Source: Saccharicrinis carchari (GTDB taxonomy: Bacteria; Bacteroidota; Bacteroidia; Bacteroidales; Marinilabiliaceae). From it: a stretch of 64,000 bases of DNA. The stretch is taken from positions 186,001-250,000 of the forward strand of contig NZ_FXTB01000005.1 in assembly GCF_900182605.1 (NCBI RefSeq), given 5' to 3'. The notes under the pieces are model-generated. The model did no database searches, had not been told where the DNA came from, and was given only the letters and a program-made list of their open reading frames with translations. Position numbers and translations under genes: made by a program. This document shows positions 14,683 to 30,618 of the stretch, in pieces. How positions within the stretch are numbered: position 1 is the stretch's first letter; each line of letters opens with the position of its first letter.

Positions 14683-15456
14683 TTACAAGGAAGATGAATG
14701 TTTATTCTTACCCATAAACCTAAGAATGTGTAATACTAATATCACACTGAGCAATACCATTATAACATAAAACAATGAATTTAGCGGGCTCATAGAAAAT
14801 TCTTGAATCCGGGTAGTTTGCGAATAAAAATTAATCAGCACATGCAGAACAATGGGTGCCCACAGAGATTTTGTTTTATCATAAACCCAACAAAACAGTA
14901 TTCCATAAACAAACAAAAAACTCAAATCGGAAAAATTAAAATGAACCCCGGCAAAAAGCATACTTGATATAATCACCGATATCCAGAATGAATAATTTTC
15001 CTTTAGTAATTTGAAAATTACACCTCTAAAAATGAGTTCTTCCATAATAGGCGCAATAAGTATTTTCCCCATTGAGAAAACAACAAATGACACGGAAAAC
15101 GATTCCAATCCGGGCAAAAAGACCGTTGCTCTGCGATGGATTAGATTGTCAAAAAACAACCCGGGATGGCTGAATAAAGGAAGAATAAACCAAATAATTA
15201 TGCTAAAAACAACTAAAAGCATCAAAGTTTGAAAACTTAATGGGCTAAATTTATATCTAAGGTTAAGTGAATGTTTCCGATTAAAATAATATACTACAGG
15301 TATATTAGCTAACGACCCCGAGGCCATCAATAACGAAACAAAAGTTGCAGACAGCACTATCCCTAAAATCTGGGGGACAGTTCCAAATAAAAATAGAAAT
15401 ATGGCGGGTGCAATAACACTGAGGGCTGCTACGAATATTACATATATTATTTTCAT
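14683..15456 (-). CDS. CPBP family intramembrane metalloprotease
   Basis: 257 residues with about seven membrane helices. The catalytic motifs are present: EELIFR (Glu139, Glu140, Arg144), a histidine in AGVHFNF (His172) and HVLIN (His205, Asn209). These bind the metal in the Abi/CAAX-protease family. In bacteriocin loci such proteins give self-immunity or process peptides; a similar role here is inference from its place at the downstream end of the peptide-secretion cluster. A copy of the cluster's intergenic repeat lies between it and the next gene upstream. Confidence 0.88.
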   Translation of the reverse strand: MKIIYVIFVAALSVIAPAIFLFLFGTVPQILGIVLSATFVSLLMASGSLANIPVVYYFNRKHSLNLRYKFSPLSFQTLMLLVVFSIIIWFILPLFSHPGLFFDNLIHRRATVFLPGLESFSVSFVVFSMGKILIAPIMEELIFRGVIFKLLKENYSFWISVIISSMLFAGVHFNFSDLSFLFVYGILFCWVYDKTKSLWAPIVLHVLINFYSQTTRIQEFSMSPLNSLFYVIMVLLSVILVLHILRFMGKNKHSSSL

Positions 15457-15490
15457 AAATTGTTATTGTGGATTGATAATTCGCTTTTTG

Positions 15491-15582
15491 CATTTCCACT
15501 AAACGCAGCAAATGTTAAGCTATCGACTTGTTGCTAGCATGGCCTGCCAGGCTTGGCCATGGCAAACAGGTAAATATTTTTA
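15491..15582. repeat. cluster intergenic repeat, copy A (truncated)
   Basis: Shares CATTTCCACT, ACGCAGCAAATG, GCCAGGCTTGGCCATGG and CAAACAGGTAAATATTTTT with copies at 18581 and 27330. The inner part can fold (CTTGTTGC with GCAAACAGG-type arms). It ends at the stop codon of the adjacent aspartyl protease gene. Confidence 0.8.
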
Positions 15583-16971
15583 TTGTTCAGGTCTTTTTCT
15601 GATGTGTAGGTAATATTCTCCAATTTCTGTTTCTTGTCTTTTTATCCAATCAAATAGTGGGGATTCTTTTATTAAAAATGGGTAATTAACAAAAGTATCG
15701 GGGAGCTCGATGTTCTTTTGTTTCTTTAATTTTTGCGAAATAACACTATCTTTACCTTTTACCGTTATTACATTATAATCATTTTGAAAATAGAACTCAG
15801 CCATTATTTTTCGATAATTAGAGGCAACAAACCTGTAGGAATTGTCTTTTTCGACCCACCTATCATGAAAATAAGATTCGTTTCTTTTATACACCTCATT
15901 GTTATTTATTACCAGCACGGTATCGCCAAGGCTAATGCCTGGTTCCAGATTATTGCGTAAATGAGAGATGATAGGTTGTGTATTATAATTGGAAATGCCC
16001 ACCCCTGATGAATTAATAACGTAATTGATATTCTTGTAATAATCAGTTGTTTTATATTGTTGTTTTTCTCCAAAATAAATTCTTTGGTTTATATAGTCGA
16101 TGATTACATTGTTAAAACGTTTTAAAAAATCAAGCCCCAATACGTTGTCTTTATTAGAATTGATTTGGATCATTTCATCTTCAAAAGCATGGTTGGCCAC
16201 CTCGAGACCGGCGATGGAATAATAGACCTGCTTTTCATAAAGAATATCATTTTTTTCAAAAATATTATTCCCTGCATTTTTCCCAAGGACATCCCATTTT
16301 TGTAAGTGATGTAGTTTGTTTTTAAGTGCGCTTTGGTCTTTGTTAATCAGTGCAAACCCTGACAGTCCTGTATCTATAATAAAATCAGTTTCAATCCCAT
16401 TTACTTGAACTGTAATTACAGGACGCTTGTTTTTGAGCCTAAACGGAATGCCCGGAAGTTTTGGTTTAAACCTCTCGATAGAGTCCGTTATTTGAATGTG
16501 TTTGTTGGCAAAATCAATTTTCCATATCAAATTTTCCAGAATATCCCCTCCTAATAAACCATCATAATGCCTGATTGGGTAACTTAAGAAATGACAATTG
16601 GAAAACTCAATTTCAGAAAGCATAAAATTGTCAATTAAAACTTCTGCTGCTTCAAATGTATTACCGTCAATATCTTCAAAAACACTATTTTTTTTTAAAT
16701 CATGCGAAGGAATATTTGTATTAATCATTGTTCCATCTGCCCCTGTATCAAACCCGAACGTATATTGTTTGCCGTTAATAATACATTTTGTAAATATTGT
16801 TGTCCCTTCCTGATTAAATATGAGTGGAATTGTATCTGTTTTATTGTTTAGTTGAAACGTCATAGCACTTGGTTGCTTTCTCGAGCCAGAGGTGCAAGCA
16901 AACAAAATTACAAATGAGAGTGAAATGCAAAGATTTACCCAAAGGTGTTTTGTGGTTTTTAATATTGCCAT
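15580..16971 (-). CDS. retropepsin-like aspartyl protease lipoprotein, copy 1
   Basis: 463 residues with a signal peptide and lipobox LFAC (Cys26). Two retropepsin-like domains each carry a DTG triad: FDTGADG at 75-77 and IIDTGLSG at 200-202. Each domain has the later hydrophobic-glycine flap partner (GLLGGDIL near 138; VLGLDFL near 275). The C-terminal third looks PDZ-like (LEPGISLGDTVLVINNNEVY). It should be an envelope-anchored peptidase. The first roughly 250 codons are almost identical in DNA to the gene at 25349-26737, while the last part has diverged. Confidence 0.87.
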   Translation of the reverse strand: MAILKTTKHLWVNLCISLSFVILFACTSGSRKQPSAMTFQLNNKTDTIPLIFNQEGTTIFTKCIINGKQYTFGFDTGADGTMINTNIPSHDLKKNSVFEDIDGNTFEAAEVLIDNFMLSEIEFSNCHFLSYPIRHYDGLLGGDILENLIWKIDFANKHIQITDSIERFKPKLPGIPFRLKNKRPVITVQVNGIETDFIIDTGLSGFALINKDQSALKNKLHHLQKWDVLGKNAGNNIFEKNDILYEKQVYYSIAGLEVANHAFEDEMIQINSNKDNVLGLDFLKRFNNVIIDYINQRIYFGEKQQYKTTDYYKNINYVINSSGVGISNYNTQPIISHLRNNLEPGISLGDTVLVINNNEVYKRNESYFHDRWVEKDNSYRFVASNYRKIMAEFYFQNDYNVITVKGKDSVISQKLKKQKNIELPDTFVNYPFLIKESPLFDWIKRQETEIGEYYLHIRKRPEQ

Positions 16972-17018: not shown

Positions 17019-18497
17019 TTATTCATCTTCCGGGGGTATATTTGACACCGTTTGTTCTTTACCATTTTTATAGAACGTTACTGTTTGTTCCTTGCCCATT
17101 AGGGTTGACCATGGAATGCCCATCCATAAGTTTTTTAAATCAAAGCGTATGGCGGAAAATCCATATTTAAAATCATCTGATGAAAAACCATAGGCTAAAG
17201 CTGGGAGTGGACTCATTTGTGTGTCGCGCACAGCGCTGACCGATTCAATTTTTCCGTGTTTTAGAAAATGCAAAATTGCTTTATTTCCACGGCTAAAGGT
17301 ATTTAGCACCTCTGCTTTCTGCCTGATTGTATCTTCCTCCACATAAAACTTTGTACGGCTATCTGTTTCAATAATTTTATCCATTGTTGCCTCGTTAAAA
17401 AGCATATTGTCGATACCAACCAGTGTGTCGCCCGCTTGTATATTTTCATAGGCTTGTCGATATTGTAGGGCATGAATTGTAAAAGGCACCGATTTATTTA
17501 GTTGCATCCCCAGCGAGTTGATGCGCTTGTAAAAAAGATTGAGGTATGCAGCAGGCACATCTTTAACCCTTTTCCCGGAAAATTTTACGAAATCAATGTC
17601 ATCGGGGAATGTAAACCAGATAATGGAAGCCGGGTAATCAATAGTTATGGATGCAAAACGGCGTATGAACACGGTGCCAATAAGATTATAGTTTACGCCG
17701 TTATTGTATGCAACAATTGTATGGGCAATCTTTTTATCTCCCAGGCTAAAGTTGGCTAAAACACAGACAACAGAATCTTTTAGCGGATTTGATTTTGTCG
17801 AGAATAGTCCGATGCTCCCATCTATCCATATTTGGTTATCGTCTTTAACCTTATCCTCTAAGTGAGCACTCGGAGTACCAATATTAATTTCGCCCGAATA
17901 GCCGGAATCGAAAAGGAATGTATCCTTTTTCCCTGCCAAAGTTTCTGCGAAGTAAATGCAATTGTATTGTAAATCAAAAGGGATGCATTCCCCTTCAGGC
18001 TCAAACGCTCCTGAACTTTTTGCCAGCATAATCTTTTTCCGAACGTTATCAATCTTTACACAGAAGTTGCGTAATAGGTCACCCCCAATAATGCCATCAG
18101 CATTAAAATTCAGTGAATCGAGCATAGCACAGGTCAAATTTTTTATGATTACACCTCCCCATTCAATGTGCTTTACTTTTGTCGTAGGCAACTTTCGTGT
18201 AATTCCTTTGGAGTCGGCAGCTGTTGTAGTCGTATTTGCCCCCAACAGGCTGTTGTTGGTTGGGACAATGCTCATGGATGCTCCTGTGTCAATAATCAGA
18301 CTGAGGGTATCTTCTAAAATAACAGCCTTGGTAATCATGTTTCCACTAATACAATAGTGGAAAGGAATTTCAACAACTTGTTGCTCTTTGGGAAATTCAA
18401 TGGATAATTCCTGCTCGCTACAACTAAGCAAGCAAAATGTTGAAATTGCTGTAAGGAGAAGAAAGGCTAAGTTTTTTTTGCGTTTTGTGTTTTTCAT
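17019..18497 (-). CDS. retropepsin-like aspartyl protease lipoprotein, divergent paralogue
   Basis: 492 residues; signal peptide with lipobox LLSC (Cys26). Two domains with active-site motifs IIDTGAS (70-72) and LFDSGYSG (197-199), each followed by an ADGIIGGDLL- or NLIGTVFI-type segment. A PDZ-like region (QAGDTLVGIDNMLF) and a beta-rich tail follow. It has the same architecture as the neighbouring copy but is clearly divergent. It shares the minus-strand direction of the cluster and lies about 50 bp upstream of copy 1, so they are probably cotranscribed. Confidence 0.85.
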   Translation of the reverse strand: MKNTKRKKNLAFLLLTAISTFCLLSCSEQELSIEFPKEQQVVEIPFHYCISGNMITKAVILEDTLSLIIDTGASMSIVPTNNSLLGANTTTTAADSKGITRKLPTTKVKHIEWGGVIIKNLTCAMLDSLNFNADGIIGGDLLRNFCVKIDNVRKKIMLAKSSGAFEPEGECIPFDLQYNCIYFAETLAGKKDTFLFDSGYSGEINIGTPSAHLEDKVKDDNQIWIDGSIGLFSTKSNPLKDSVVCVLANFSLGDKKIAHTIVAYNNGVNYNLIGTVFIRRFASITIDYPASIIWFTFPDDIDFVKFSGKRVKDVPAAYLNLFYKRINSLGMQLNKSVPFTIHALQYRQAYENIQAGDTLVGIDNMLFNEATMDKIIETDSRTKFYVEEDTIRQKAEVLNTFSRGNKAILHFLKHGKIESVSAVRDTQMSPLPALAYGFSSDDFKYGFSAIRFDLKNLWMGIPWSTLMGKEQTVTFYKNGKEQTVSNIPPEDE

Positions 18498-18580: not shown

Positions 18581-18699
18581 CATTGCCACTATCGCTGCAA
18601 ATGCCAAGATATGGGGATGTTGCTTGTATGGCCCGCCAGGCAGGACCATGGCAAAATAGCAAATGATTTTTTACCCGTCTGCATCCATCTATATTTTTT
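18581..18699. repeat. cluster intergenic repeat, copy B
   Basis: Shares CATTGCCACT, GCAAATGCCAAG, GTATGGCCCGCCAGGC, CCATGGCAAAA, TTTTTTACCCGTCTGCATCCATCT with copies A and C, but is the most divergent. It sits between the aspartyl protease gene and the CPBP gene at 18699. Confidence 0.75.
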
Positions 18700-19451
18700 T
18701 AATTTAAAAAACCCTTTACCCTATGCCAGCCAGTTTTAAAAAACAGGAAACTTAGCATTGTCATTGAAACACCGGCAATTATGTAATATGTTGGCGATTG
18801 CAAAAGAGCACTGTTAGCATTGAAGAAATCTTTCCATAAAGTGTTTTCAATCGCAATTATTCCATTGTACAGTACATGGATAAGTATTAACAAGGTGCCA
18901 TTTTTTAGAATATAATATAACCTTACCAAAACCAATGAAAAGATAAATAAACTGACATGCGCATAAAAACTTCCAAAATGAATTAAGGCAAAATAGATAG
19001 ATATGATAATGGCTATAATCCAGAAATTTAGTCTATGTTTAAATTTGTTTATAATCAATATTCGGAAACCCATTTCCTCGAAAATGGGCGTTAACAATAC
19101 AAAGAATATAATTTGATAAGGATTTCTGTTCCAGCCATAAACCGTTGCATTTTCCATATCTATATTATGGATAAATATCATACTTATGTGTAATGCGAAT
19201 ACTATGAGGAGTGCAAGCACTAAATCTTTCCAAGTTGGTATTTTAAAACTTGATTTTAGCCTTAGGTCTTTGTAGAATATCAATAAGAATATGACAAAAG
19301 TAACATAAGACCATAGCTGCGGCCATTTAAGCAACGATAAGTCAATATTCCCAACAATATAGACGAGTATCCCTGATAATACTGGATATATCAAAAGTAT
19401 TAATACCATTAATATGAATGCGTACATTTTTTTCAAAATTTTATCGTTCAT
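18699..19451 (-). CDS. CPBP family intramembrane metalloprotease
   Basis: 250 residues with roughly eight hydrophobic helices. The motif EEMGFR (Glu125, Glu126, Arg130) and IHFG (His158) mark the Abi/CAAX protease active site; HVLYNGI near 214 supplies the third motif. Cellular role in the cluster is unknown; immunity against, or trimming of, a secreted peptide is the usual proposal for such context. It follows the next CPBP gene by about 60 bp. Confidence 0.85.
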   Translation of the reverse strand: MNDKILKKMYAFILMVLILLIYPVLSGILVYIVGNIDLSLLKWPQLWSYVTFVIFLLIFYKDLRLKSSFKIPTWKDLVLALLIVFALHISMIFIHNIDMENATVYGWNRNPYQIIFFVLLTPIFEEMGFRILIINKFKHRLNFWIIAIIISIYFALIHFGSFYAHVSLFIFSLVLVRLYYILKNGTLLILIHVLYNGIIAIENTLWKDFFNANSALLQSPTYYIIAGVSMTMLSFLFFKTGWHRVKGFLN

Positions 19452-19511: not shown

Positions 19512-20252
19512 TCAGGGAGAAACCGAGCGATTAGGCCCTTTGATAATCTTGTAAACGAAAAATAAAAAATAAATGCCGGAAACAGCAAGTATTGGATATG
19601 CATAGGCTATGGGTAAATTGAGGATAGAAATAAAAAAATATGTTAGGTTGATTAAAAAATGTGCCGCAATGGAGTAAAGGATGTTATTGGTGTATAGAAA
19701 AATAAATCCTAAAAACAACCCGCTAAAAAAGTGTAAAAGAAGCACTCGCCAAATATCTATGTACATGGCATTGTAATGCCAAAAAGCAAAAAGCAAAGCA
19801 TTGATAAAAAGAGCAAGCATTACATTTATTCCCTTTTTTCTAAGGTAATCGAGCAGCCAGGCTCTAAAAAGTACCTCCTCGCTCCAAGTGGCAATAAACA
19901 AAGCACTTATGATTCTCAATATCCCAAATTCCCTTGCCACAAGGTACTGTGGCTCGCCTTCAGTCCATAGATGACCAATTGCAATGCTGATCAACGAATA
20001 TGCGACACACCAAAAAATAAATGCTATATTAAAACTGTTATCTTTAAAGAGGTTTATATTAATACTGCCTTTTTTGCGGAGGATAACGATGAGGTAAACG
20101 ACAACTACGATTCGTCCAATATGACTTGCAAAGGCTACCTGCTGAGGCATCAGATTAGTTAATGATAGGAGTAAAACTGTAATGGCTGCTTCTAAAATAA
20201 AAGTTACCAATAAAGGGAGTAGTGCAATTGACAGTATTTTAATAATTTTCAT
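19512..20252 (-). CDS. CPBP family intramembrane metalloprotease
   Basis: About 246 residues from MKIIKIL; a start ten codons upstream (20282) would overlap the glycosyltransferase stop and cannot be excluded. The catalytic motif is WSEEVLFRAW, followed by FAFWHYNAM (second motif) and AAHFLINL (third). About seven membrane helices. Together with its neighbour and the one at 14683 it makes three intact CPBP genes in one cluster, which is unusual. Confidence 0.85.
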   Translation of the reverse strand: MKIIKILSIALLPLLVTFILEAAITVLLLSLTNLMPQQVAFASHIGRIVVVVYLIVILRKKGSININLFKDNSFNIAFIFWCVAYSLISIAIGHLWTEGEPQYLVAREFGILRIISALFIATWSEEVLFRAWLLDYLRKKGINVMLALFINALLFAFWHYNAMYIDIWRVLLLHFFSGLFLGFIFLYTNNILYSIAAHFLINLTYFFISILNLPIAYAYPILAVSGIYFLFFVYKIIKGPNRSVSP

Positions 20253-20263
20253 AATATTAGATT

Positions 20264-21043
20264 TTAACTTTTCCATGTCCATGTATCTATATAATCATGC
20301 ATTTCGGCTGTTTTCATACTACACACTTTTATCAGTTCATTTACATTGTTTTTATCCCTTTCGGTATAACCGCAGGCTGAATTGATACCACGGGGATGGT
20401 ACAAATGAAACAAGGGCCCTTTGATTCGTGCAATAGGTTCTTGAAGAATTTCCATACGTTTTAAACGTTCAGCATCTTCCGGCCCCCAACCATAAAAATT
20501 TTCATTCTCCCCTCCCGCTTGTAAGTAACGATCTTTATTTACGATAAAAGCTCCTCCTACAGAAGGTCGGCCCAAAGCTGTGGGCACATCTGTCGTATTT
20601 TCATCTGTTAGGTTTAAAAAGGAGGTCATATTATATCTCACCTGATTACTTTGTTTTGCACCTAAAAACAAAAAACGTCCATCATATGGGTAACAAAGCG
20701 TAATTCCATTATTGATGGCATTGATGCCATCTTTTATTTGTTTAGCATTCAAAATAACATCTGTATCCCATATTCCTACTTTATCGGTTTCGGACATTTT
20801 CAATAATTTATTTAAATAATGCGTTCTATGAAGTATGGGATTATCGTCATGAATAAAGACATACTTTATCCTGTCTTCTCGTTCTTTAAAAAAATATTGC
20901 CGTTTGCTATCCGCTTCCAAAATAATTATAAATGCACTTGTCGTTTCAAGTATTGAGAATAAAACAATATCCAGATTCTCTTTTCGTTCTTTACAATCAA
21001 TTCTGACGGGTATAACAATAGTCAGTTCAGCAGTTACATCCAT
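20264..21043 (-). CDS. GT-A glycosyltransferase, galactosyltransferase-like
   Basis: 259 residues, no membrane segment. The fold markers are LTIVIPVRIDCKERKENLD at the start, the metal-binding DxD in GIWDTDVIL (about residues 89-95) and the C-terminal NFYGWGPEDAERLKR, which matches the acceptor/metal motif of beta-1,4-galactosyltransferase-type families. It should transfer a sugar from a nucleotide donor in the cytoplasm. Its ATG lies inside the end of the LanC-like gene (10-bp overlap), so the two are translationally linked. Peptide glycosylation is a plausible but unproven role. Confidence 0.82.
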   Translation of the reverse strand: MDVTAELTIVIPVRIDCKERKENLDIVLFSILETTSAFIIILEADSKRQYFFKEREDRIKYVFIHDDNPILHRTHYLNKLLKMSETDKVGIWDTDVILNAKQIKDGINAINNGITLCYPYDGRFLFLGAKQSNQVRYNMTSFLNLTDENTTDVPTALGRPSVGGAFIVNKDRYLQAGGENENFYGWGPEDAERLKRMEILQEPIARIKGPLFHLYHPRGINSACGYTERDKNNVNELIKVCSMKTAEMHDYIDTWTWKS

Positions 21044-21735
21044 GGTTTCAAAACTTTTAATGAATTTATCCCTAATAATTCATAGTTATCAGATATCAGG
21101 CAATTGAAATCAATTATTTTCCGTAAGCAGAGGTTTATTAGTTTTTCTACTTTATAATTGAATATGTTTAATTTCTGTAACCTACAAAGCAAGAAATAGG
21201 CATCGTTATAATTATGTCTATCTTTTGTATTTAGGAGTGTAGTCTCCATCCAATCAATCCAATAAATCAAGTATTCTTTAAGTTTCAAGGTAGCCATATC
21301 ATCAGCCTTATCTGGCCTGTGTTTTAGGCGGTAATACAGATAGTAACCAACACCGCAAATGCCTTTTTTTAGGTTGATTGTATCGGTAGGACGTGATTCG
21401 ATGATGTTTTGTGCCACGAGATCTATTTCTGATAACATTTCATCGTTGTCTGCATCCGCAAACCCTTTACTGATAATATACTCGAATCCGCAAGCGATTC
21501 CCAACAACCCATTGTCAAAACAAAACGGCATTTTATAAGAAACTTGTTCGTAAATGGCATCAATCAAATTAAATGCTTCGTTATTATATTTTTCATTTTG
21601 CGTTATTCGTGCAGCATGCAACAAATAAATGGCAATGCCCATTTTCCCATTCCAAAGACCAATATCCGAGCAGCATTTCCCTTTTTCTATTAGGCGGTCG
21701 GTATATTCGTTTAAAAACATGTATTGCTCTTCCAT
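21034..21735 (-). CDS. LanC-like protein without visible zinc ligands
   Basis: 233 residues, shorter than the roughly 400 of LanC cyclases. The repeated helix-glycine motifs of the LanC alpha/alpha toroid are present: IGLWNGKMGIAIYLLH, DNGLLGIACGFEYI and LKKGICGVGYYLYYRL. I see neither the W-C-x-G nor the C-H-G zinc motifs that LanC needs for thioether cyclisation. The gene overlaps the glycosyltransferase downstream and follows the HlyD gene by about 80 bp. It may be a scaffold or chaperone for the modifying enzymes rather than a cyclase. Confidence 0.75.
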   Translation of the reverse strand: MEEQYMFLNEYTDRLIEKGKCCSDIGLWNGKMGIAIYLLHAARITQNEKYNNEAFNLIDAIYEQVSYKMPFCFDNGLLGIACGFEYIISKGFADADNDEMLSEIDLVAQNIIESRPTDTINLKKGICGVGYYLYYRLKHRPDKADDMATLKLKEYLIYWIDWMETTLLNTKDRHNYNDAYFLLCRLQKLNIFNYKVEKLINLCLRKIIDFNCLISDNYELLGINSLKVLKPWM

Positions 21736-21813: not shown

Positions 21814-23118
21814 CTACATTTGTACTTTCTCCTCAAAAACCGCCCTGAGGGGGTTGAAAAAGCGCATCAGCAAACTCAAATCATCGGTTAAAATTTCTGC
21901 ACTGCCCATTAACTGTTGCACCCTGGGCAGCTTTTCGCCGTAAGATGTAACAAGGCCGTCGGCGAGAACCACGTCGGCACTGTACAGCAATTCGTTGGGG
22001 ACTTTTGAGATGCCGGACAAATGGCCAACGAGCATCCCGAACTCCTGATAAGGGTAATTGTGCAATTTAATATTCACGCGTTGCCCTTCCTTAACTTTCC
22101 CTGAATTTTGAATAGGGAATTGCAAACGCACTTTTACTTTCATGGAGTCGTCGGGAACGACGGAGAGAACCATTTCGCCGGTTTTAACGTTTTGGTTGCG
22201 GCTCCAAAAAGTGGTAAAACTCACAATGCCGTCAACGGGGGCCACAATCAAATAATTTTGTTTCCAGGCTTCTATCCGCGACTTTAACAAGTATATGTTT
22301 TGAGTCAATCGTACAACAAATTGTTGTTTGTCGGCTTTGTGTTTCAGTTCCATCTTTGTTAAATCATAACCCAGTTGTTCCAATGCCGCGCTACTATTCA
22401 CAATATCTATATCCATATCTACCAATACCGATCTAAATTGGAGTATGTTCTGATAACTTTGTTCATATTCGCTTTCGGCAATCAGCTCTTGGTCAAATAT
22501 AATGGAGTCGCGCCTGTATCTCTTTTCGGCCAGTTTAAATTGCTGTTCTAACAAAGTCCTTTTTTGTATCAATTGATGCAGATACTCCCGCTGAACGATT
22601 TCTTTTTTACGCAACGATTTATGCTCCTCTTCAAAAAAGCCCGAATTAAGGAAGCGATACAATTCGGTATAATTGATAATCAGTTCGGAATAGTTTTGTT
22701 GAATGTCGCCCAATACGAGCTTATCCTTAAAAAACGACGGATGCCGGACTGTTGAATCAACATTGTTTAAGGTAATGGAGTCGAGCATTGAAATATAATC
22801 AGTCAATACCCTAATATCTTTAAACCTGGCCGTTGATTCCAATAGGATAAGTACCTTATCTTTTACAACGCTTTGACCTTCCTCAACAAATACCTCTTCA
22901 ATTTTACCATTCATCCGGGCCATAAGATTAGCGGGCGGGTTTATGCTTGTAATCTCAGCGGATGCGGGTACTATGTCAGGGTACTTTACAAAACCCGACA
23001 CCACAATAATCAACATTAAAAATAGGAAGAAGAAGCTTACCCCCCATCTCATTATCCGCGACGGGCGATAATTATAAATCTTATCTCTGTATATCTGTCT
23101 TAACTGAACATCTGACAT
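21814..23118 (-). CDS. HlyD family membrane fusion protein of a peptide exporter
   Basis: 434 residues. A short cytoplasmic N-terminus is followed by one membrane helix (about 25-45), the lipoyl-like half AEITSINPPANLMARMNGKIEEVFVEEGQSV, a long coiled-coil hairpin (about 150-280) and the returning barrel VAPVDGIVSFTTFW plus VKVRLQFP. It should bridge the PCAT in the inner membrane to a TolC-type outer-membrane channel, which is not encoded here. The gene lies 20 bp downstream of the PCAT, as in characterised export pairs. Confidence 0.9.
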   Translation of the reverse strand: MSDVQLRQIYRDKIYNYRPSRIMRWGVSFFFLFLMLIIVVSGFVKYPDIVPASAEITSINPPANLMARMNGKIEEVFVEEGQSVVKDKVLILLESTARFKDIRVLTDYISMLDSITLNNVDSTVRHPSFFKDKLVLGDIQQNYSELIINYTELYRFLNSGFFEEEHKSLRKKEIVQREYLHQLIQKRTLLEQQFKLAEKRYRRDSIIFDQELIAESEYEQSYQNILQFRSVLVDMDIDIVNSSAALEQLGYDLTKMELKHKADKQQFVVRLTQNIYLLKSRIEAWKQNYLIVAPVDGIVSFTTFWSRNQNVKTGEMVLSVVPDDSMKVKVRLQFPIQNSGKVKEGQRVNIKLHNYPYQEFGMLVGHLSGISKVPNELLYSADVVLADGLVTSYGEKLPRVQQLMGSAEILTDDLSLLMRFFNPLRAVFEEKVQM

Positions 23119-23138: not shown

Positions 23139-25328
23139 TTAATCTAATTCGAGTTGGTTGGCCACCAGGTTATAGTAAATTCCTTTTAGCTTTATCAGTT
23201 CCTCGTGTGTGCCCTGTTCAGCAACCCTTCCTTTATCTAGGACCACAATATTGTGGGCATTTTTTACCGTGCTCAGGCGATGAGCAATTACGATGGCCGT
23301 TTTGCCTTCCAGTATTTTTTCCAGGTTCTTCGATATTTTTCGTTCGTTATTGGCATCGAGGGAGTTGGTTGCCTCGTCCAGGAAAATAAAATCGGGGTCT
23401 TTATAAATGGCCCTGGCAATAAGTATCCGTTGCTTCTGCCCCTGGCTCACGCCGGACCCATTTGTGCCTAATGGCGTATAAAGCTTGAGCGGACGCTCGT
23501 TGACAAACTCCTCGATGTTGGCCAATCGGATGGCGCTGAGCAATTGCTTTTTATCCACATTCGTATCTTCATCTTCCAGGGTAATGTTGTATAAAATAGT
23601 ATCGTTAAAAAGCTTGCCGTCCTGTAAAACGGCACCGCATGTGTTGCGCCACCTGTAAAGTTCAATACTGTCTAACGGCACGCCGCCAATATCAATTTCG
23701 CCTTGTGTGGGATCGTAAAACCGCAATAGTATTTTTATCAGCGTGGTTTTACCGCTTCCGCTCTCTCCAACTATAGCCGTAACCTTGCCTTGGGGTATGT
23801 GTAAATTAATATTATCCAATACCTTGTTTAGGTTGGGGTTATAATGAAAATCCAGTCCCCTTATGTCAATCCCCTTATCTAAGGGAACGGGCATATTAGA
23901 TTTCGATTGCTCCGGCTCCTCGTCCAGGATGACTTCGTTAACGCGTTTGAGGCTGATTTTTGCAAATTGCAACGAATGTACAAAGCCTATCATACTTTTG
24001 ATGGGCGCATTTAACTGGCCCAAAATATATTGGGCCGCCATCATCATCCCCAGGGTCATTGTGCCCTCAATTACGTTGAGCGCAGCAATATAGGTAATGA
24101 ATATACCCTGCGTATGTATAATAAATGTGGCGCCGGTTGCCTCTATCTGGTTTAGGTCCATATTTTTTACCCTTAAGCCATATATTTTGTAGCGGCTAAA
24201 TTCCCATTTCCAACGGCGCCGGTTGGCTATGTTGTTCACCTTTATCTCGTTTATGCTTTCCAATAGCTCCAATAGCTCGTTTTGGTTTGTTGTACGCGAC
24301 TCAAAAAGTTGGTTGTCCAATTTTTTGCGTTGCTTTAAAAACAGGAATATCCATCCGGTATAAACAGCATTGCCAATCATAAACACCATAAACATATTGC
24401 TCTCGTAGTAGAGCATCAGCAAGCTGTAAACAATGAACAGCAGTATGTTGATAAAAATGCCCAAAAAGGTGGACATGATAAACGATTGGATGCGGTCGTG
24501 ATCGGCAATACGCGTCAACAGGTCGCTGACCATTTTTCGTTCGAAAAACGGAATGGGCAAGCGCAATGTTTTACGCAAAAAATCGCTTACCATGCTCATA
24601 TTTACGCGCTCCGAAATGTACAGCATTAAACGGCTTTGAATAAATCCCGATGCCATGGAACTAATGGCAAGGATAAGCCCGGCTGCCAACATGATGTTGA
24701 TAAACTGGATGTTGCCCGATCCAATACCAAAATCAACGATGGCCTGCGAAATAAAGGGCGAAAGCAAACCGATAAAAATGCCGGCCACCATCCCCACGAT
24801 AACTTGTGCCAGGTATTTATGGTGCGGCTTCAGGTATTTCATAAAGTGCCGGAACGATGCTTTGGTCTCTGTATCTTCCTGATCGTAAAACTCCGGGGTG
24901 GGCTCCAGCACCAAAACGGCGCCCACGCCATTGGGCATTTCCCATGCCTCCCTAAATTCTTTGTACTTATAGCTTATCAGTCCCTGTGCAGGGTCCGAAA
25001 CATAAATTTTGTTGCGGGTTATTTTATACACCACCACAAAATGTTTTTGTTTCCAATGTACCACCAGGGGCAAGGGCATTTTTGCAATAAAATCCTCAAA
25101 GCCCACCTTGATAGCCAGGGTGCGGAAGCCCATATCCTCGGCCGCTCGTCCAATATCGAACAGCGAAACACCCTCGCGGGTGATATAACAACGATCGCGC
25201 AGGTATTTTAATGAAAAGGTTTTACGGTAATACCTGGAGATAATCTTCAGGCAAGCCGGCCCGCAATCCATCTGGTCGTGTTGTATGTAGGTGGGGAACT
25301 GAGTTATTTTATGCAATGATTTTCTCAC
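23139..25328 (-). CDS. peptidase-containing ABC transporter (PCAT, C39 family)
   Basis: 729 residues. The N-terminal C39 peptidase has its oxyanion glutamine (Gln16), QMDCGPACL with catalytic Cys22, KHFVVVYK with His96 and SDPAQG with Asp112. Six membrane helices follow (about 165-430), then the ATPase: Walker A GESGSGKTT, signature VSQGQKQR (variant of LSGGQ), Walker B FIFLDEATNSLD and H-loop AHRLST. It should cut a double-glycine leader and export the product. The precursor gene and HlyD partner adjoin it. All catalytic residues are present. Confidence 0.95.
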   Translation of the reverse strand: MRKSLHKITQFPTYIQHDQMDCGPACLKIISRYYRKTFSLKYLRDRCYITREGVSLFDIGRAAEDMGFRTLAIKVGFEDFIAKMPLPLVVHWKQKHFVVVYKITRNKIYVSDPAQGLISYKYKEFREAWEMPNGVGAVLVLEPTPEFYDQEDTETKASFRHFMKYLKPHHKYLAQVIVGMVAGIFIGLLSPFISQAIVDFGIGSGNIQFINIMLAAGLILAISSMASGFIQSRLMLYISERVNMSMVSDFLRKTLRLPIPFFERKMVSDLLTRIADHDRIQSFIMSTFLGIFINILLFIVYSLLMLYYESNMFMVFMIGNAVYTGWIFLFLKQRKKLDNQLFESRTTNQNELLELLESINEIKVNNIANRRRWKWEFSRYKIYGLRVKNMDLNQIEATGATFIIHTQGIFITYIAALNVIEGTMTLGMMMAAQYILGQLNAPIKSMIGFVHSLQFAKISLKRVNEVILDEEPEQSKSNMPVPLDKGIDIRGLDFHYNPNLNKVLDNINLHIPQGKVTAIVGESGSGKTTLIKILLRFYDPTQGEIDIGGVPLDSIELYRWRNTCGAVLQDGKLFNDTILYNITLEDEDTNVDKKQLLSAIRLANIEEFVNERPLKLYTPLGTNGSGVSQGQKQRILIARAIYKDPDFIFLDEATNSLDANNERKISKNLEKILEGKTAIVIAHRLSTVKNAHNIVVLDKGRVAEQGTHEELIKLKGIYYNLVANQLELD

Positions 25329-25348: not shown

Positions 25349-26737
25349 TTATTCATGTCTATTTATAATGTGTAGATAATATTCTCCAATTTCTGTTTCT
25401 TGTCTTTTTATCCAATCAAATAGTGGCGATTCATTTATTAACAATGGATAATTGATAAATGTATCAGGAAGTTCGACGACCTCATTTTTTTGTAACTTTT
25501 TTAAGACAACACCATCTTTACCTTTTACCTTTATTACATTGTAGTCATTTTCAAAATAAAACTCGGCCATTACTTTTCTATAATTAGAAGCTACAAACCT
25601 GTGGTATTTATCTTCTTTGACCATCCTATCGTGAAAATAAGAACTATTTCTTTTATAAACTTCATTGTTATTAATTTCCAGCACGGTATCGCCAAGGCTA
25701 ATGCCTGGTTCCAGATTATTGCGTAAATGAGAGATGATGGGTTGTATATTATAATTGGAAATGCCCACCCCTGATGAATTAATAAAGTAATTGATATTCT
25801 TGTAATAATCAGTTGTTTTATATTGCTGTTTTTCACCAAAATAAATTCTTTGGTTTATATAGTCGATGATTACATTGTGAAAACGTTTTAAAAAATCAAG
25901 CCCCAATACGGTGTCTTTATTAGAATTGATTTGGATCATTTCACCTTCAAAAGTATGGCTGGCTACTTCGAGACCGGCGATGGAATAATAGACCTGCTTT
26001 TCATAAAGAATATCATTTTTTTCAAAAATATTATTCCCTGCATTTTTCCCAAGGACATCCCATTTTTGTAAGTGATGTAGTTTGTTTTTAAGTGCGCTTT
26101 GGTCTTTGTTAATCAGTGCAAACCCTGACAGTCCTGTATCTATAATAAAATCAGTTTCAATCCCATTTACTTGAACTGTAATTACAGGACGCTTGTTTTT
26201 GAGCCTAAACGGAATGCCCGGAAGTTTTGGTTTAAACCTCTCGATAGAGTCCGTTATTTGAATGTGTTTGTTGGCAAAATCAATTTTCCATATCAAATTT
26301 TCCAGAATATCCCCTCCTAATAAACCATCATAATGCCTGATTGGGTAACTTAAGAAATGACAATTGGAAAACTCAATTTCAGAAAGCATAAAATTGTCAA
26401 TTAAAACTTCTGCTGCTTCAAATGTATTACCGTCAATATCTTCAAAAACACTATTTTTTTTTAAATCATGCGAAGGAATATTTGTATTAATCATTGTTCC
26501 ATCTGCCCCTGTATCAAACCCGAACGTATATTGTTTGCCGTTAATAATACATTTTGTAAATATTGTTGTCCCTTCCTGATTAAATATGAGTGGAATTGTA
26601 TCTGTTTTATTGTTTAGTTGAAACGTCATAGCACTTGGTTGCTTTCTCGAGCCAGAGGTGCAAGCAAACAAAATTACAAATGAGAGTGAAATGCAAAGAT
26701 TTACCCAAAGGTGTTTTTTAGTTTTTAATATTGCCAT
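25349..26737 (-). CDS. retropepsin-like aspartyl protease lipoprotein, copy 2
   Basis: About 462 residues from MAILKTKKH; in-frame codons upstream belong to the precursor gene region on another reading frame and are not used. Lipobox Cys26, two DTG motifs (75-77 and 200-202) and the same flap and PDZ-like segments as the gene at 15580. The first two thirds are nearly identical at DNA level to that copy, the last third is roughly three-quarters identical. It lies between the precursor and the exporter, directly after a terminator-like hairpin, so low-level readthrough expression is likely. Confidence 0.87.
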   Translation of the reverse strand: MAILKTKKHLWVNLCISLSFVILFACTSGSRKQPSAMTFQLNNKTDTIPLIFNQEGTTIFTKCIINGKQYTFGFDTGADGTMINTNIPSHDLKKNSVFEDIDGNTFEAAEVLIDNFMLSEIEFSNCHFLSYPIRHYDGLLGGDILENLIWKIDFANKHIQITDSIERFKPKLPGIPFRLKNKRPVITVQVNGIETDFIIDTGLSGFALINKDQSALKNKLHHLQKWDVLGKNAGNNIFEKNDILYEKQVYYSIAGLEVASHTFEGEMIQINSNKDTVLGLDFLKRFHNVIIDYINQRIYFGEKQQYKTTDYYKNINYFINSSGVGISNYNIQPIISHLRNNLEPGISLGDTVLEINNNEVYKRNSSYFHDRMVKEDKYHRFVASNYRKVMAEFYFENDYNVIKVKGKDGVVLKKLQKNEVVELPDTFINYPLLINESPLFDWIKRQETEIGEYYLHIINRHE

Positions 26738-26751
26738 AACTTTTAAAATTA

Positions 26752-26774: not shown

Positions 26775-26780
26775 ATTACT

Positions 26781-27152
26781 TTAGTTGCCACCATAAAAAT
26801 GTGTAATTCCAGTTGGACCATACGTAGTTCCATTCGCACCAATAGAATCAGCTCTCTGAATATGAGTGGAATCCGGTGCCGGCTGACTACCGTTGTTAAT
26901 AATTGTTGTATTGTTGAAACCGACAGTAGTGGTCGTATTATTGTTTATACCACTGTTGCCACTGTTGTTTCCACCTCCATCATCTTGGCCACTGCCTGAA
27001 CCATACGCTACTGCTGCTCCAACTATCAACCGATACAACCATGCTGGTGGGGCTGCACCTCCTATCAAAGTCATCTGTTCATTTTCTCCAATCATAGGAA
27101 ACTCATCCTTTATCCTGTTAATTCTCAGTTTTTTCAATTTTCTCTTTTCCAT
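26781..27152 (-). CDS. double-glycine leader precursor peptide with Asn/Thr/Gly-rich core
   Basis: 123 residues. The first 32 form a leader: Lys/Leu-rich MEKRKLKKLRINRIKDEF, then ENEQMTLIGG, closely resembling the Bacteroidota GG-type natural-product precursor leaders. Cleavage after Gly32 is predicted. The core starts AAPPAWLYRLIVGAAVAYG, a hydrophobic segment, and continues as a Gly/Asn/Thr-rich stretch (NNSGNSGINNNTTTTVG, FNNTTIINNGS) with no cysteine at all, ending HFYGGN. The exporter and possible modifying enzymes follow on the same strand. The core is longer than most RiPP cores; product identity is unknown. Confidence 0.85.
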   Translation of the reverse strand: MEKRKLKKLRINRIKDEFPMIGENEQMTLIGGAAPPAWLYRLIVGAAVAYGSGSGQDDGGGNNSGNSGINNNTTTTVGFNNTTIINNGSQPAPDSTHIQRADSIGANGTTYGPTGITHFYGGN

Positions 27153-27329
27153 AATGTTTTATTTTTTTCCGAACCATTCATAGGCTGTATTTTATGAATA
27201 AAGTTCAGATAAACCCCGACTTAGTTGAAGTTAAACTTTTTTCTTAAAAAGTTTCTACTGAACCTTAGTCGCTGTTGTAGACAGAAATAATTCTCTAATT
27301 ATTTGGGAGGGATTCATAAATCGTTTTCA

Positions 27330-27445
27330 CATTTCCACTTACGCAGCAAATGCCAAGCTATCGGCCTGTTGCTGGCATGGCGCGCCAGGCTTGGCCATGG
27401 CAAACAGGTAAATATTTTTTACCTGTCCGCATCCATCTTTATTTT
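27330..27445. repeat. cluster intergenic repeat, copy C (fullest copy)
   Basis: Longest copy of the 90-120 bp repeat, located between the inverted arms. It contains nested palindromes: CCTGTTGC with GCAAACAGG, TGGCGCGCCA, and ACAGGTAAA with TTTACCTGT. The other copies are at 15491 and 18581. Confidence 0.8.
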
Positions 27446-27535: not shown

Positions 27536-27692
27536 TAGCCCAAATAATTGACTACGTCGAACGTTGTTTCAAGAATTATTCCTACCTCCGGTAGCGACTA
27601 AGTTTCACTAATAATTTTTTTCAAAAATTAAAGTTCAGCTATATCGGGGCTAACCTGAACTTTATTCATATTTTTGACAGTTTATGAATAGT

Positions 27693-29252
27693 TCAGGTTA
27701 GTTTTATTTTATCCAATTCGTATAGATTTGATGTGTCGTCCAACAGATAATCATAACCCGGCAAATCCTGATTTTTATCTTCCTCAATATACATCCGGTG
27801 TTTTTTTACGCGATTCGATTCTTTAAGTGATCCGTGGTCTTTGAACAAGACTTTACTGATTAGGATGTTTTTAAAATAGGGACATGCGGCAAAATGAAGT
27901 TTCTTTTTATGTGTACTTATGCTGGCATGACCAATGGGCCTGAACATCCTGTAAATTTTTAGGACACCCTTATCGGAATAGGGAAGACCTTTGTAGATGT
28001 CCTTGTTCCCCCATAGGTACACCCCACTAAAAGCCACCACATCAACCTTCGGGTCATCCTCAAAGGCTGCAAAATCCACAAAGCGTTTATCAAAACGTTC
28101 GTCGATGTCCATAAAACAAAGCCACTCGGCTTTAAAAAAGGAAGCCAGGTTGAGCAGAATGTTACGGTTTTCCAAATCGTTAAAGCCATCCCGCTTTTTC
28201 TTTGCTTTTAGCAGTATTTTATCATGTTGTGCCAGTTCCCAGGTGTCGTCGGTACTTTCGTCGTCTAATACAATAATGCCGTCGAAGTATTTGGTCATAT
28301 CTTTTAGAAAGCCGGGCATAAACTCCGTTTCGTTATAGGCCTGGCAAAGGAGCAGTTTTTTGTGCTTTTTAGTAAAAACGGCAGGGTCTTTTATTTCATG
28401 TTCCATGAAGCCCTCAAGGTATTTGCGGCACATTTCTTCGGCGTAGATGTTGTTTTGCCAATCGTAAACTACCTTGTTAAACTCCCTACCCCAGCTATTG
28501 CCATTAACTTTTGCACGAACAGGATAATAAAACGTTTTTAATTCTTTGGCACTAAAACTATTGGTTTTGGCAAAGCGCTCCTTCATCATGAGTTTTTCTT
28601 CGCGGTGGAGAGATTTTGCGTGGGGCACCTTTAATTGCTTGATGCCGGCCATATGCAATCGCCTGCGGATATTGTCATCCTCGCCACCCCAAACCTTAAA
28701 CTGTTCATCGAAGGCACCTATTTGTTCCATTGCTGTTTTTTCAACCATAAGGCTACCATAATGCATCCAATCAAACTGGTGCAGGTTATGGGGTGTTACT
28801 TGGCTGTTATTTTCCACAAAGGCTACTGTTCCCGTTGCGTAATGGCCCGGATAGTTTTCCAACAGTTGCCTGAGTTGAAAAATAACATCGGTATGAAATT
28901 CCACTTCCGGGTCGGATATCAGGATGTACTTTTTTGTGGCGTGGCGGATGCCCACGTTCAGCACGGGAGCATGATTTCGTGGCTCATGCGGCTGCGTGTT
29001 TACAATTACTTTCCAATTGATGAACGGATAGTTTTTTATCAATTCAAGTAAACCCTCCTGCTCTGTGGGTTCATCCATTACAACAAGCACTTCGATACCG
29101 TTGCGTTGCAGGTAAGGGGCATTCTTTGGTAGCACTTTTTTAAATGCCCCCAGCTTACGATAGAATGACATGACCACGCTTACCTCAAAGTTATGGGCTA
29201 CGCTCTGGTTAAATTGTTGAATTGCGCGGTATGATTTCTTTTTACTGTTCAT
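27693..29252 (-). CDS. two-domain GT-A glycosyltransferase
   Basis: About 519 residues from MNSKKKSY; a start 14 codons upstream is also open. The N-terminal GT2-like domain has SVVMSFYRKLGAF, ILISDPEVEFH and the galactosyltransferase-type motif FKVWGGEDDNIRRRL. A second glycosyltransferase-like domain starts around residue 300 (LLLCQAYNETEFMPGFLKD, IIVLDDESTDDTWEL, LCFMDIDERFD), resembling GT92/GT2 cores. Both domains keep acidic DxD-type residues. The last codons lie inside a hairpin. It follows the GT-B gene by about 90 bp and precedes the precursor gene, so peptide or glycan modification is possible. Confidence 0.8.
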   Translation of the reverse strand: MNSKKKSYRAIQQFNQSVAHNFEVSVVMSFYRKLGAFKKVLPKNAPYLQRNGIEVLVVMDEPTEQEGLLELIKNYPFINWKVIVNTQPHEPRNHAPVLNVGIRHATKKYILISDPEVEFHTDVIFQLRQLLENYPGHYATGTVAFVENNSQVTPHNLHQFDWMHYGSLMVEKTAMEQIGAFDEQFKVWGGEDDNIRRRLHMAGIKQLKVPHAKSLHREEKLMMKERFAKTNSFSAKELKTFYYPVRAKVNGNSWGREFNKVVYDWQNNIYAEEMCRKYLEGFMEHEIKDPAVFTKKHKKLLLCQAYNETEFMPGFLKDMTKYFDGIIVLDDESTDDTWELAQHDKILLKAKKKRDGFNDLENRNILLNLASFFKAEWLCFMDIDERFDKRFVDFAAFEDDPKVDVVAFSGVYLWGNKDIYKGLPYSDKGVLKIYRMFRPIGHASISTHKKKLHFAACPYFKNILISKVLFKDHGSLKESNRVKKHRMYIEEDKNQDLPGYDYLLDDTSNLYELDKIKLT

Positions 29253-29343
29253 GTGTTCAAAATTTAGCAGGTTTCTGACAACTAGTCCAATCATTAATCA
29301 GGCCTCCCGAGTAGCCTAATTATTTGCTCCGGCCATGCCGGTT

Positions 29344-30618
29344 TCATGTGGCAACTAAAATTTTTTCATGAACCAAATCTTGGACAAATTCTGCGAACAT
29401 TTCAGGTTCTTCTTCATATCCACTTGCTGTCAGTGCTTTTTTCATCTCTATCCCTTTACCAAAAAGGTGTATAATTTCCGCCTCTTCTTTTTCAAAATGG
29501 CTGTGTACATATCCGGTTTGGATATTGTTTAGTACATATTTATCCTGCGTGAGCAGCAGTAGTTGCCACGCACCTGATAATTTGAGTTTCATGGTCCAAA
29601 AATCATTTTTCAACTGCTCGTGGGTATTTACTGTACGTTGTAAAAAGTCCAGCAAGGCCTTCTCTTGTTTTGCAGATTCTTTTTTAAGTAACTGGTGGTT
29701 TTCTTTTACCATTTTATTTACCCGCTCACTTCCCCATTCCAATAGGTCAAGCACATTGTCCATCAATAGTTTTTCGGGGATGTGCTCACCCAGTTCGCCG
29801 CCTATCCTGCCCTGAAAATGATTATGATACTGAACTAGAAAGTTCTCCCGGTTTAATAACCCCCCATAGCCTCGCTCCCCGGCAACAATTACCGGTTTGC
29901 CTAAAGCGATTGCCTTTAGGGCGGCATTGCTACTACCGACCACTATGTCCGTTTCGGCAATCAAATGATCTATATCGATTCCTTTTTGGGCTATGACTTT
30001 AATATTAGGATTCAGCATTTTACGCAGCGCCATATTGTCCGAAACAACTTTGATGTCGAAGTTCAACAATTTATTTAGCCAGGGGGCTATTTGATAAAAA
30101 GGAGAAAAGAAGAGGTTCTGATGATGGATAATGACCAGTACCCTGGGCTTGTTCGAATTGTTTAGACGATACTTTTTAAAGGCCGGTATGGTAACAGCGA
30201 TTCGCCATGGAAATACAATATCTTGCTGTAAGAGCATTGCCGGAAAATTACGGGGTGGGGTAATAAGTACTAATTTGTTTACATGCCTCTGGTTCATGGG
30301 ATATTCCTTGGCAAAAGTTTGAGCATCCATCATGCAAACCGTTGGAATATCATTTCGCTTGGCCAAGGCTTTAAGCTGCCCGCTACCTGTTGTATTGTAG
30401 GTAAGCATTAGGTCGTAATGCGCTAGTTTAAGTTTATTTGGTTCACTAAAGGTTAGCTGTTTGATCGCACTTAGCGAATTATCCGTTAAATTAATTCGCC
30501 TGTTCTTTCGCAGTGCTAAGGTGGGTTCGCTCCCACTACGAGCCAGCACGCCTAATATGGTATTCAGCATGTTGGCATCATCATCGGTTCGGATATGGCC
30601 TAGGAAAAGAATATTCAT
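29344..30618 (-). CDS. GT-B-like glycosyltransferase with a possible PqqD/RRE-like C-terminal domain
   Basis: 424 residues, no membrane segment. The first 330 residues show two Rossmann-like halves: MNILFLGHIRTDDDANMLN, then VLVIIHHQNLFFSPFYQI and ETDIVVGSSNAALKAIALGKPVIVAG, the latter being the donor-binding end of GT-B or CDP-glycerol transferase-like proteins. The last 80 residues (from about KLSGAWQLLLL) read as a short strand pair and three helices ending FVQDLVHEKILVAT, a pattern like PqqD-type winged helices that bind leader peptides. This last point is inference. First gene of the minus-strand run. Confidence 0.65.
   Translation of the reverse strand: MNILFLGHIRTDDDANMLNTILGVLARSGSEPTLALRKNRRINLTDNSLSAIKQLTFSEPNKLKLAHYDLMLTYNTTGSGQLKALAKRNDIPTVCMMDAQTFAKEYPMNQRHVNKLVLITPPRNFPAMLLQQDIVFPWRIAVTIPAFKKYRLNNSNKPRVLVIIHHQNLFFSPFYQIAPWLNKLLNFDIKVVSDNMALRKMLNPNIKVIAQKGIDIDHLIAETDIVVGSSNAALKAIALGKPVIVAGERGYGGLLNRENFLVQYHNHFQGRIGGELGEHIPEKLLMDNVLDLLEWGSERVNKMVKENHQLLKKESAKQEKALLDFLQRTVNTHEQLKNDFWTMKLKLSGAWQLLLLTQDKYVLNNIQTGYVHSHFEKEEAEIIHLFGKGIEMKKALTASGYEEEPEMFAEFVQDLVHEKILVAT

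What the first reader, a model, noticed from the sequence alone, without database searches (positions are those of the whole stretch)
14683..30618. Candidate undescribed peptide-secretion/RiPP-like cluster
A double-glycine precursor, PCAT exporter with complete C39 triad, HlyD partner, LanC-like protein, three glycosyltransferase-like enzymes, three two-domain retropepsin lipoproteins and three CPBP proteases lie on one strand with short gaps or overlaps. PCAT/HlyD/GG-leader systems are known; the combination with paired retropepsin lipoproteins, a zinc-less LanC-like protein and sugar transferases, and no radical SAM or dehydratase, is not one I can match. Function of the whole is inference.
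Basis: partly seen in the sequence, partly recalled or inferred. Interest (0 to 1): 0.88.

Follow-up and report, generated by a model that had tools for sequence, protein, structure and literature searches.

The report
Secreted-peptide cluster with partner protease lipoproteins
This is a gene cluster of a Bacteroidota bacterium for making, probably sugar-coating and exporting a small peptide; it belongs to a widespread, barely described family of such clusters in which the peptide gene is often followed directly by a surface-type protein (a retrovirus-like protease or a beta-propeller) that may protect the producer or process the peptide.

Summary
In detail: 13 co-directional genes at 30618-14683 (minus strand). 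The core PCAT-HlyD-zinc-less LanC-like-GT (galactosyltransferase type) is a conserved cassette across Bacteroidota: 46 GT relatives found, LanC-like gene within 200 bp in 36, all four genes contiguous in 16 (Hoylesella, Capnocytophaga, Algoriphagus). None of 46 LanC-like partners has the LanC zinc motif. Zinc-less LanC-like proteins in GG-leader clusters with rSAM and glycosyltransferase genes were reported in 2023 (PMC10352776), so that part is not new. New here: a two-domain retropepsin sits directly downstream of a GG precursor in eight pairs from six genomes, B. fragilis included; elsewhere that slot holds a 6-bladed beta-propeller lipoprotein; orphan arrays of both exist. The window's variant is unusual: its precursor core has no cysteine (28 of 29 relatives have three or more) and it lacks the rSAM and VKOR enzymes of relatives. 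Best reading: an exported, probably glycosylated GG peptide, with retropepsins and CPBP proteases as immunity or processing partners. Anatomy is well supported; function is inferred. GT_C is not a proven glycosyltransferase. Retropepsin-PCAT proximity in general is only background.

The parts
29344..30618 (-). GT_C, 424 aa; possible GT-B-type nucleotide-sugar enzyme, unproven; first gene of the run
   Evidence: No Pfam or PDB match; no full-length relative in 396 phylum genomes, only local matches of 49-87 residues; AF2 single-sequence model poor, pLDDT 40.7; 49 nt before GT_B
27693..29294 (-). GT_B, 533 aa, two GT2-type domains
   Evidence: PF00535 E=5.3e-15, two stretches; Glyco_transf_7C E=5.4e-8; PF13704 E=1.6e-7; weak SunS peptide S-glycosyltransferase similarity E=6.3e-6, far below cut-off
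26781..27152 (-). Precursor, 123 aa: GG leader (...ENEQMTLIGG, 32 aa) and 91-aa core without Cys, rich in G/N/T/A/S
   Evidence: no Pfam/NCBIfam hit; leader resembles that of L041 2747-3514; matched by the local precursor HMM (the window sequence was one of its seeds)
25349..26737 (-). RP3: two-domain retropepsin with PDZ-like tail, probable lipoprotein; directly downstream of precursor (43 nt)
   Evidence: PF13975 E=9.1e-13 on the longer ORF 25349-26842; both DTG motifs; GISLGDTVLEIN
23139..25328 (-). PCAT: C39 peptidase plus ABC exporter, GTG start
   Evidence: (bacteriocin transporter 4ry2 E=1.1e-102, ComA 8hf4), C22/H96/D112
21814..23118 (-). HlyD-family membrane fusion protein
21034..21735 (-). 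LanC-like, 233 aa, part of a LanC barrel, no zinc motif
   Evidence: PF05147 positions 6-126/350; AF2 pLDDT 91.2; Foldseek top hits LanCL2, GCR2, MadC, LanCL1, NisC, TMq 0.50-0.61; 233-aa orthologues in Hoylesella, 62-68% id
20264..21043 (-). GT_A, 259 aa, beta-1,4-galactosyltransferase-type C-terminal region, DTD motif
   Evidence: PF02709 E=5.9e-7; B4GalT7 4irp E=4.5e-5 with profile A1; overlaps LanC-like gene by 10 nt
19512..20282 (-). CPBP3 intramembrane protease
   Evidence: PF02517 E=1.9e-17, motifs complete
18699..19451 (-). CPBP2 intramembrane protease
   Evidence: PF02517 E=7.8e-13, motifs complete
17019..18497 (-). RP2: divergent two-domain retropepsin lipoprotein (lipobox LLSC), no precursor of its own
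   Evidence: PF13650 E=1.5e-5; DTG and DSG
15580..16971 (-). RP1: near-copy of RP3 (94.9% DNA identity), no precursor of its own
14683..15456 (-). CPBP1 intramembrane protease
   Evidence: PF02517 E=5e-24, motifs complete
15503..15581 (-). 79-nt element, copy 1, before CPBP1
   Evidence: matches found only in this cluster in the whole genome
18592..18670 (-). 79-nt element, copy 2 (73%), before RP2
27341..27419 (-). 79-nt element, copy 3 (91%), before precursor

Best explanation
A Bacteroidota GG-leader peptide system. The 123-aa precursor is made in the cytoplasm; the C39 domain of the PCAT cuts after Gly-Gly (residue 32) and the PCAT-HlyD pair exports the 91-aa core. Before export the core, which has no cysteine but many Ser, Thr and Asn, is most likely glycosylated by GT_A and possibly GT_B, with the zinc-less LanC-like protein serving GT_A as a peptide-holding subunit rather than as a cyclase. 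Outside the inner membrane the cognate partner of the peptide is the retropepsin-PDZ lipoprotein encoded directly after it; I think it most likely protects the producer by binding or cutting the peptide. RP1, RP2 and the three CPBP proteases would be further immunity genes. Shown: gene content, order, intact catalytic motifs, missing zinc motif and missing maturases, the cassette and the precursor-retropepsin pairing elsewhere. Inferred: glycosylation, the LanC-like role, immunity, antagonistic activity.
For: PCAT with full C39 triad and ATPase motifs. Cassette: LanC-like gene within 200 bp of GT_A, same strand, in 36 of 46 GT_A relatives; PCAT-HlyD-LanC-like-GT_A contiguous in 16. 0 of 46 LanC-like partners carry the CHG zinc motif, so the subfamily is not expected to be a lanthionine cyclase; the fold is still LanC-like. 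No Cys in the core; 28 of 29 relative cores have at least three. Precursor followed directly by a retropepsin in window, L037/L144, L180 (B. fragilis), L193, L195 (twice), L209 (twice); in the GT_A set, which was not chosen by retropepsin, 2 pairs against about 0.02 expected, P about 2e-4 (the retropepsin density used is my estimate). Beta-propeller lipoproteins fill the same slot; L193 has one precursor with each kind; L210 has an array BP-BP-RP-RP-BP without a precursor, as expected of orphan immunity genes. A 79-nt element is shared by the precursor, RP2 and CPBP1 units and not found elsewhere in the genome. Some CPBP (CAAX) proteases are reported to give bacteriocin immunity (stated in PMC9298176).
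Against: No glycosylated product or antibacterial activity is shown for any member. The precursor-linked retropepsins are a minority: only 2 of 46 GT_A loci have one, and the 29 best-scoring retropepsin loci outside this genome in a phylum-wide sample lie next to no GG precursor; across the order, retropepsins near PCATs are at background. In PMC9298176 the CPBP protease SilX was not needed for immunity but apparently for signal-peptide processing. GT_A could build sugar on a carrier, not on the peptide.
Confidence: 0.5

Rival explanations
1. The retropepsin is a maturation enzyme: after PCAT cuts the leader and exports the core, the periplasmic or outer-membrane retropepsin-PDZ protein trims the peptide to its active form; orphan copies process other peptides.
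For: Immediately downstream, one per precursor, both catalytic Asp kept in every copy aligned, PDZ-like tail of the kind that binds C-termini in other periplasmic proteases; the window core is long (91 aa), longer than most relatives.
Against: The same slot is often taken by a beta-propeller, which is not expected to be a protease; arrays of partners occur without any precursor (L210).
Confidence: 0.3
2. The peptide is a signal or a surface-displayed glycopeptide (adhesin-like, matrix), not an antimicrobial; retropepsin and beta-propeller lipoproteins are its receptors or anchors.
For: PMC10352776 calls the proteins after the two B. fragilis precursors of BGC5 'putative signaling protein'; the low-complexity N/T/S/G core resembles glycosylated linkers; two D(S/T)(A/I/L/V/M/T) motifs of the Bacteroides O-glycosylation type (motif from my own knowledge).
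Against: Three CPBP proteases and orphan partner arrays fit conflict systems better; no kinase/regulator pair lies in the cluster.
Confidence: 0.2
3. A decayed or minimal RiPP locus: it once held rSAM maturases like its Hoylesella and Capnocytophaga relatives, lost them, and now exports an unmodified peptide; GT_A and the LanC-like gene are leftovers.
For: Closest cassettes (L137, L139) carry rSAM and pseudo-rSAM genes; the window has none.
Against: Catalytic motifs are intact, the genes overlap in one operon, and 20 of 23 GT_A loci with a PCAT within 6 kb have no rSAM detected by my HMM, so rSAM-less cassettes are common.
Confidence: 0.12
4. Chance adjacency: retropepsin and CPBP genes are common accessory genes that happened to land beside a PCAT operon.
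For: Retropepsin-PCAT proximity in the order sample is near background; CPBP genes are common.
Against: Eight direct precursor-retropepsin pairs in six genomes with diverged sequences; RP3 lies inside the operon between precursor and PCAT with gaps of 43 and 20 nt.
Confidence: 0.05

Closest known systems
Bacteroidales RiPP clusters BGC3-5 of PMC10352776 (2023), especially B. fragilis BGC5
   Same: Precursors with GG-motif residues, zinc-less LanC-like proteins without LanB, CAZymes or glycosyltransferases (BGC3, BGC5); [quoted passage not shown] fragilis L180 is shown here to be a retropepsin (that L180 is the same cluster type is my inference)
   Different: They contain rSAM and pseudo-rSAM enzymes; BGC3 and BGC5 lack a PCAT. 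The window has no rSAM, a Cys-free core, three retropepsins and three CPBP proteases
PCAT-exported class II bacteriocins and microcins (colicin V type)
   Same: GG leader, C39-ABC exporter, HlyD-type partner; immunity genes typically adjacent (own knowledge)
   Different: Here sugar-transferase and LanC-like genes are added and the putative partners are retropepsins
Class I lanthipeptides of Bacteroidota
   Same: LanC fold, GG-type leader, PCAT; in L129 a LanC-like plus GT_A pair sits beside a true LanB/LanC locus
   Different: No LanB, no zinc site, no cysteine in the core
Glycocins (SunS type)
   Same: GG leader, PCAT, GT2-type enzyme; GT_B has a weak SunS match
   Different: No cysteine, so no S-glycosylation or disulfides; GT_A is of the galactosyltransferase 7C type
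Two-domain bacterial retropepsins (PDB 9iy9 'Exported protein'; single-domain ApRick 5c9b)
   Same: Two DTG half-sites on one chain, E=3.3e-10 to 9iy9
   Different: Probable lipoprotein with PDZ-like tail, encoded next to a GG precursor

Membership tests
PCAT-exported GG-leader peptide system | C39 peptidase-ABC exporter with Cys-His-Asp triad | tested here: met
   C22, H96, D112, Walker A and signature motif
PCAT-exported GG-leader peptide system | Short precursor with double-glycine leader in the same operon | tested here: met
   26781-27152...MTLIGG|AAPP
PCAT-exported GG-leader peptide system | Leader is cut at GG and the core is secreted | not testable with these tools
   Needs mass spectrometry
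Class I lanthipeptide cluster | LanB dehydratase | tested here: not met
   All genes of the cluster scanned; none matches PF04738
Class I lanthipeptide cluster | Zinc site (C, C-H) of LanC | tested here: not met
   The Pfam match ends before that half; family-wide 0 of 46 with CHG
Class I lanthipeptide cluster | Cys in precursor core | tested here: not met
   0 Cys in 91 aa
TIGR04149 / GG-Bacteroidales rSAM RiPP system | rSAM maturase (and pseudo-rSAM partner) | tested here: not met
   None in 14683-30618
TIGR04149 / GG-Bacteroidales rSAM RiPP system | Precursor matches TIGR04149 | tested here: not met
   No NCBIfam hit at E<=0.1
Glycocin | Dedicated peptide glycosyltransferase of SunS family | tested here: inconclusive
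   GT_B vs TIGR04195 E=6.3e-6, 25.3 bits against cut-off 350
Glycocin | Disulfide-bonded core | tested here: not met
   No Cys in core
PCAT-HlyD-LanC-like-GT_A cassette (described here) | The four genes contiguous and co-directional | tested here: met
   Window 25328-20264; 16 of 46 relatives the same
Precursor-retropepsin pair (described here) | Two-domain retropepsin directly downstream of a GG precursor | tested here: met
   43-nt gap; eight pairs in six genomes including the window

The most novel reading that the evidence does not exclude
A Bacteroidota class of glycosylated GG-peptides in which a zinc-less LanC-like half-barrel acts as the substrate-holding subunit of a galactosyltransferase, and in which each exported peptide has its own interchangeable lipoprotein partner (retropepsin-PDZ or beta-propeller) serving as immunity: immunity proteins with a retroviral-protease fold, which to my knowledge are not described for any bacteriocin.
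Probability: 0.25. Interest if true: 0.85.

Novelty: new variant of a known kind. Interest (0 to 1): 0.62.

Why it matters
Zinc-less LanC-like proteins in gut Bacteroidales have been listed as puzzling cyclases or dismissed as glucanase-like (PMC10352776). Showing that they form a fixed pair with one galactosyltransferase-type enzyme behind a PCAT gives them a testable role. The precursor-retropepsin/beta-propeller pairing gives a handle for naming, finding and testing the immunity or processing partner of many orphan Bacteroidota peptides, including one of B. fragilis; the 2023 survey found no homologue of any described immunity protein.

Tried and rejected
Genome-wide test of retropepsin near PCAT in 149 order genomes: only own genome (two loci) and G212 (8 kb), near chance, so I do not claim a general PCAT-retropepsin link (intersection made by eye, list cut at the weak end). 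Phylum search with a retropepsin profile: the 29 best loci outside the genome have no GG precursor beside them. GT_C: no full-length relatives, no Pfam, no PDB sequence match, poor fold model; an RRE/PqqD-like C-terminus was suspected from the sequence but Pfam gave nothing. Regulatory RNA: no Rfam match, and the 79-nt element does not fold better than shuffles. Bacteroides-type promoter pattern not above chance. Invertible promoter suspected from an inverted repeat upstream of the precursor; more likely terminator-like hairpins, not pursued. N-glycosylation sequons in the core: 7 against 2.2 expected, but clustered NNTT runs inflate this, so not used as evidence. CPBP association in relatives: only scattered hits. 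Plasmid hits for GT_A: the Parabacteroides records carry chromosomal housekeeping genes and look like assembly fragments, so no claim of mobility. First genome-contig scan with the LanC-like protein found nothing. My early query file had RP3 in a wrong frame (corrected); RP1, 93% identical, carried those searches.
Full report
Observation. The window region 14683-30618 holds thirteen genes on the minus strand in the order GT_C, GT_B, precursor, RP3, PCAT, HlyD, LanC-like, GT_A, CPBP3, CPBP2, RP2, RP1, CPBP1. From the precursor to CPBP2 the gaps are 20-78 nt or overlaps of 10-19 nt; 540 nt separate GT_B from the precursor. Pfam confirms the C39 peptidase and ABC domains, HlyD, three CPBP (Rce1-like) proteases, three retropepsins, a partial LanC-like domain and two GT2/7C-type transferases. 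The third transferase, GT_C, has no family or structure match and cannot be called a glycosyltransferase on this evidence. The cluster is accessory: the LanC-like protein, GT_C and close retropepsin relatives are missing from the eight other genomes of the genus that were searched.

The cassette. A profile of GT_A found 46 loci in named genomes. In 36 a LanC-like gene lies within 200 bp on the same strand, and in 16 the order PCAT-HlyD-LanC-like-GT_A is exactly that of the window: Hoylesella enoeca and H. timonensis (GT_A 64-65% identical, LanC-like also 233 aa), Capnocytophaga felis, many Algoriphagus, Cyclobacterium, Rhodohalobacter. So the 233-aa LanC-like protein is a conserved short form, not a broken gene. 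None of 46 LanC-like partners has the CHG zinc motif. The AlphaFold model is confident (pLDDT 91) and its best solved matches are LanC proteins (LanCL2, GCR2, MadC, LanCL1, nisin cyclase) at TM 0.50-0.61 over the query, that is, part of the barrel (E-values 0.002-0.02). In L129 a LanC-like plus GT_A pair stands beside a complete class I lanthipeptide locus that has its own full LanC and LanB, which again separates the LanC-like pair from cyclisation.

What relatives add and the window lacks. Hoylesella and Capnocytophaga carry rSAM and pseudo-rSAM enzymes; Algoriphagus and MAG16 carry VKOR-thioredoxin proteins. These fit Cys-rich cores: of 29 precursor cores in the GT_A set, 28 have three or more Cys and one has none. 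The window core has no Cys and is rich in Gly, Asn, Thr, Ala and Ser. Absence of both cysteines and maturases is consistent, and leaves glycosylation as the only modification that the gene content predicts. This is inference.

The partner slot. In the window the gene directly after the precursor is the retropepsin RP3. The same arrangement occurs in the Marinilabiliaceae MAG16 (L037/L144), in B. fragilis Q1F2 (L180), in L193, twice in L195 (precursor-retropepsin-precursor-retropepsin-rSAM) and twice in L209: eight pairs in six genomes. L193, L195 and L209 were found through the retropepsin and so are not independent of it; L144 and L180 came from the GT_A scan, where about 0.02 pairs would be expected by chance (P about 2e-4, with a retropepsin density that I estimated). 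Both D[TS]G-type sites keep their Asp and Gly in all aligned copies. Several copies match PDZ models (L193, L195) and the window's RP1 and RP3 show the same GISLGDTVLxIN signature. In Algoriphagus, Capnocytophaga and others the slot is filled by a 6-bladed beta-propeller lipoprotein; L193 has one precursor with each kind. Arrays of these partners without a precursor exist (L210: BP-BP-RP-RP-BP), as do orphan retropepsins in the window (RP1, RP2). Immunity genes behave this way, but so could processing or receptor proteins.

Known or new. PMC10352776 (2023) reports Bacteroidales clusters with GG-type precursors, LanC-like proteins without zinc motifs and without LanB, glycosyltransferases and rSAM enzymes, and notes that in the B. 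[quoted passage not shown] I infer, but did not verify on their figure, that these are the retropepsin-PDZ proteins seen in L180. I found no paper in the held library that links retropepsins or beta-propellers to GG precursors. The finding is therefore a new variant of a known kind with one new general pattern.

Limits. A general retropepsin-PCAT association is not supported, nor is a phylum-wide link of this retropepsin type to precursors; the pairing is real but sporadic. The CPBP proteases are unique to the window among the GT_A loci apart from one possible case (L167). The 79-nt element before precursor, RP2 and CPBP1, with matches nowhere else in the genome, suggests that these units belong together or were copied together. 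Function of the product is unknown; immunity is my preferred reading, at about even odds.

Noticed in passing
L071 (G000:C3:230000-249900), 8003-8362, 12035-12370 and 14622-14819: Second PCAT/HlyD locus of the same genome; small proteins end in a GG-leader motif plus about 15-25 residues (e.g. SGEELQAVNGGFAKFKTL...), and one of them (12035-12370) begins with an HTH_11 domain (PF08279 E=1.2e-6): a possible DNA-binding protein with a built-in exportable peptide. A retropepsin lies 4 kb downstream of the PCAT gene.
   Followed up: partly
L129 6409-8595, L063 6531-8744, L062 3187-4026: LanB dehydratase genes (PF04738 E=7.9e-137, 1.3e-146, 1.8e-56) next to PCATs in three genomes of the window's order; PMC10352776 reported LanB as absent from the Bacteroidales genomes it screened (whether these fall in the same order by that naming is not known).
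   Followed up: partly
window 12906-13898: RhuM-family gene (PF13310 E=2e-109; PADLOC candidate PDC-S05 E=4.5e-149) 0.8 kb beyond the cluster end; possible sign of an accessory island.
   Followed up: no
L210 5640-12058: Tandem array of three beta-propeller and two retropepsin lipoproteins without any GG precursor in the 20 kb.
   Followed up: partly
L046 7452-11147: In a congener, a 633-aa retropepsin, a 274-aa lipoprotein-like protein and a CPBP protease form a unit without a PCAT.
   Followed up: no
L037 9403-12236: The MAG16 cluster also has a sulfotransferase and an APS kinase between glycosyltransferases, hinting at a sulfated sugar on its product.
   Followed up: no
window 27193-27240 and 27623-27670: 48-nt inverted repeat (81%) flanking the region upstream of the precursor; terminator-like hairpins or a remnant of an invertible segment.
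   Followed up: partly
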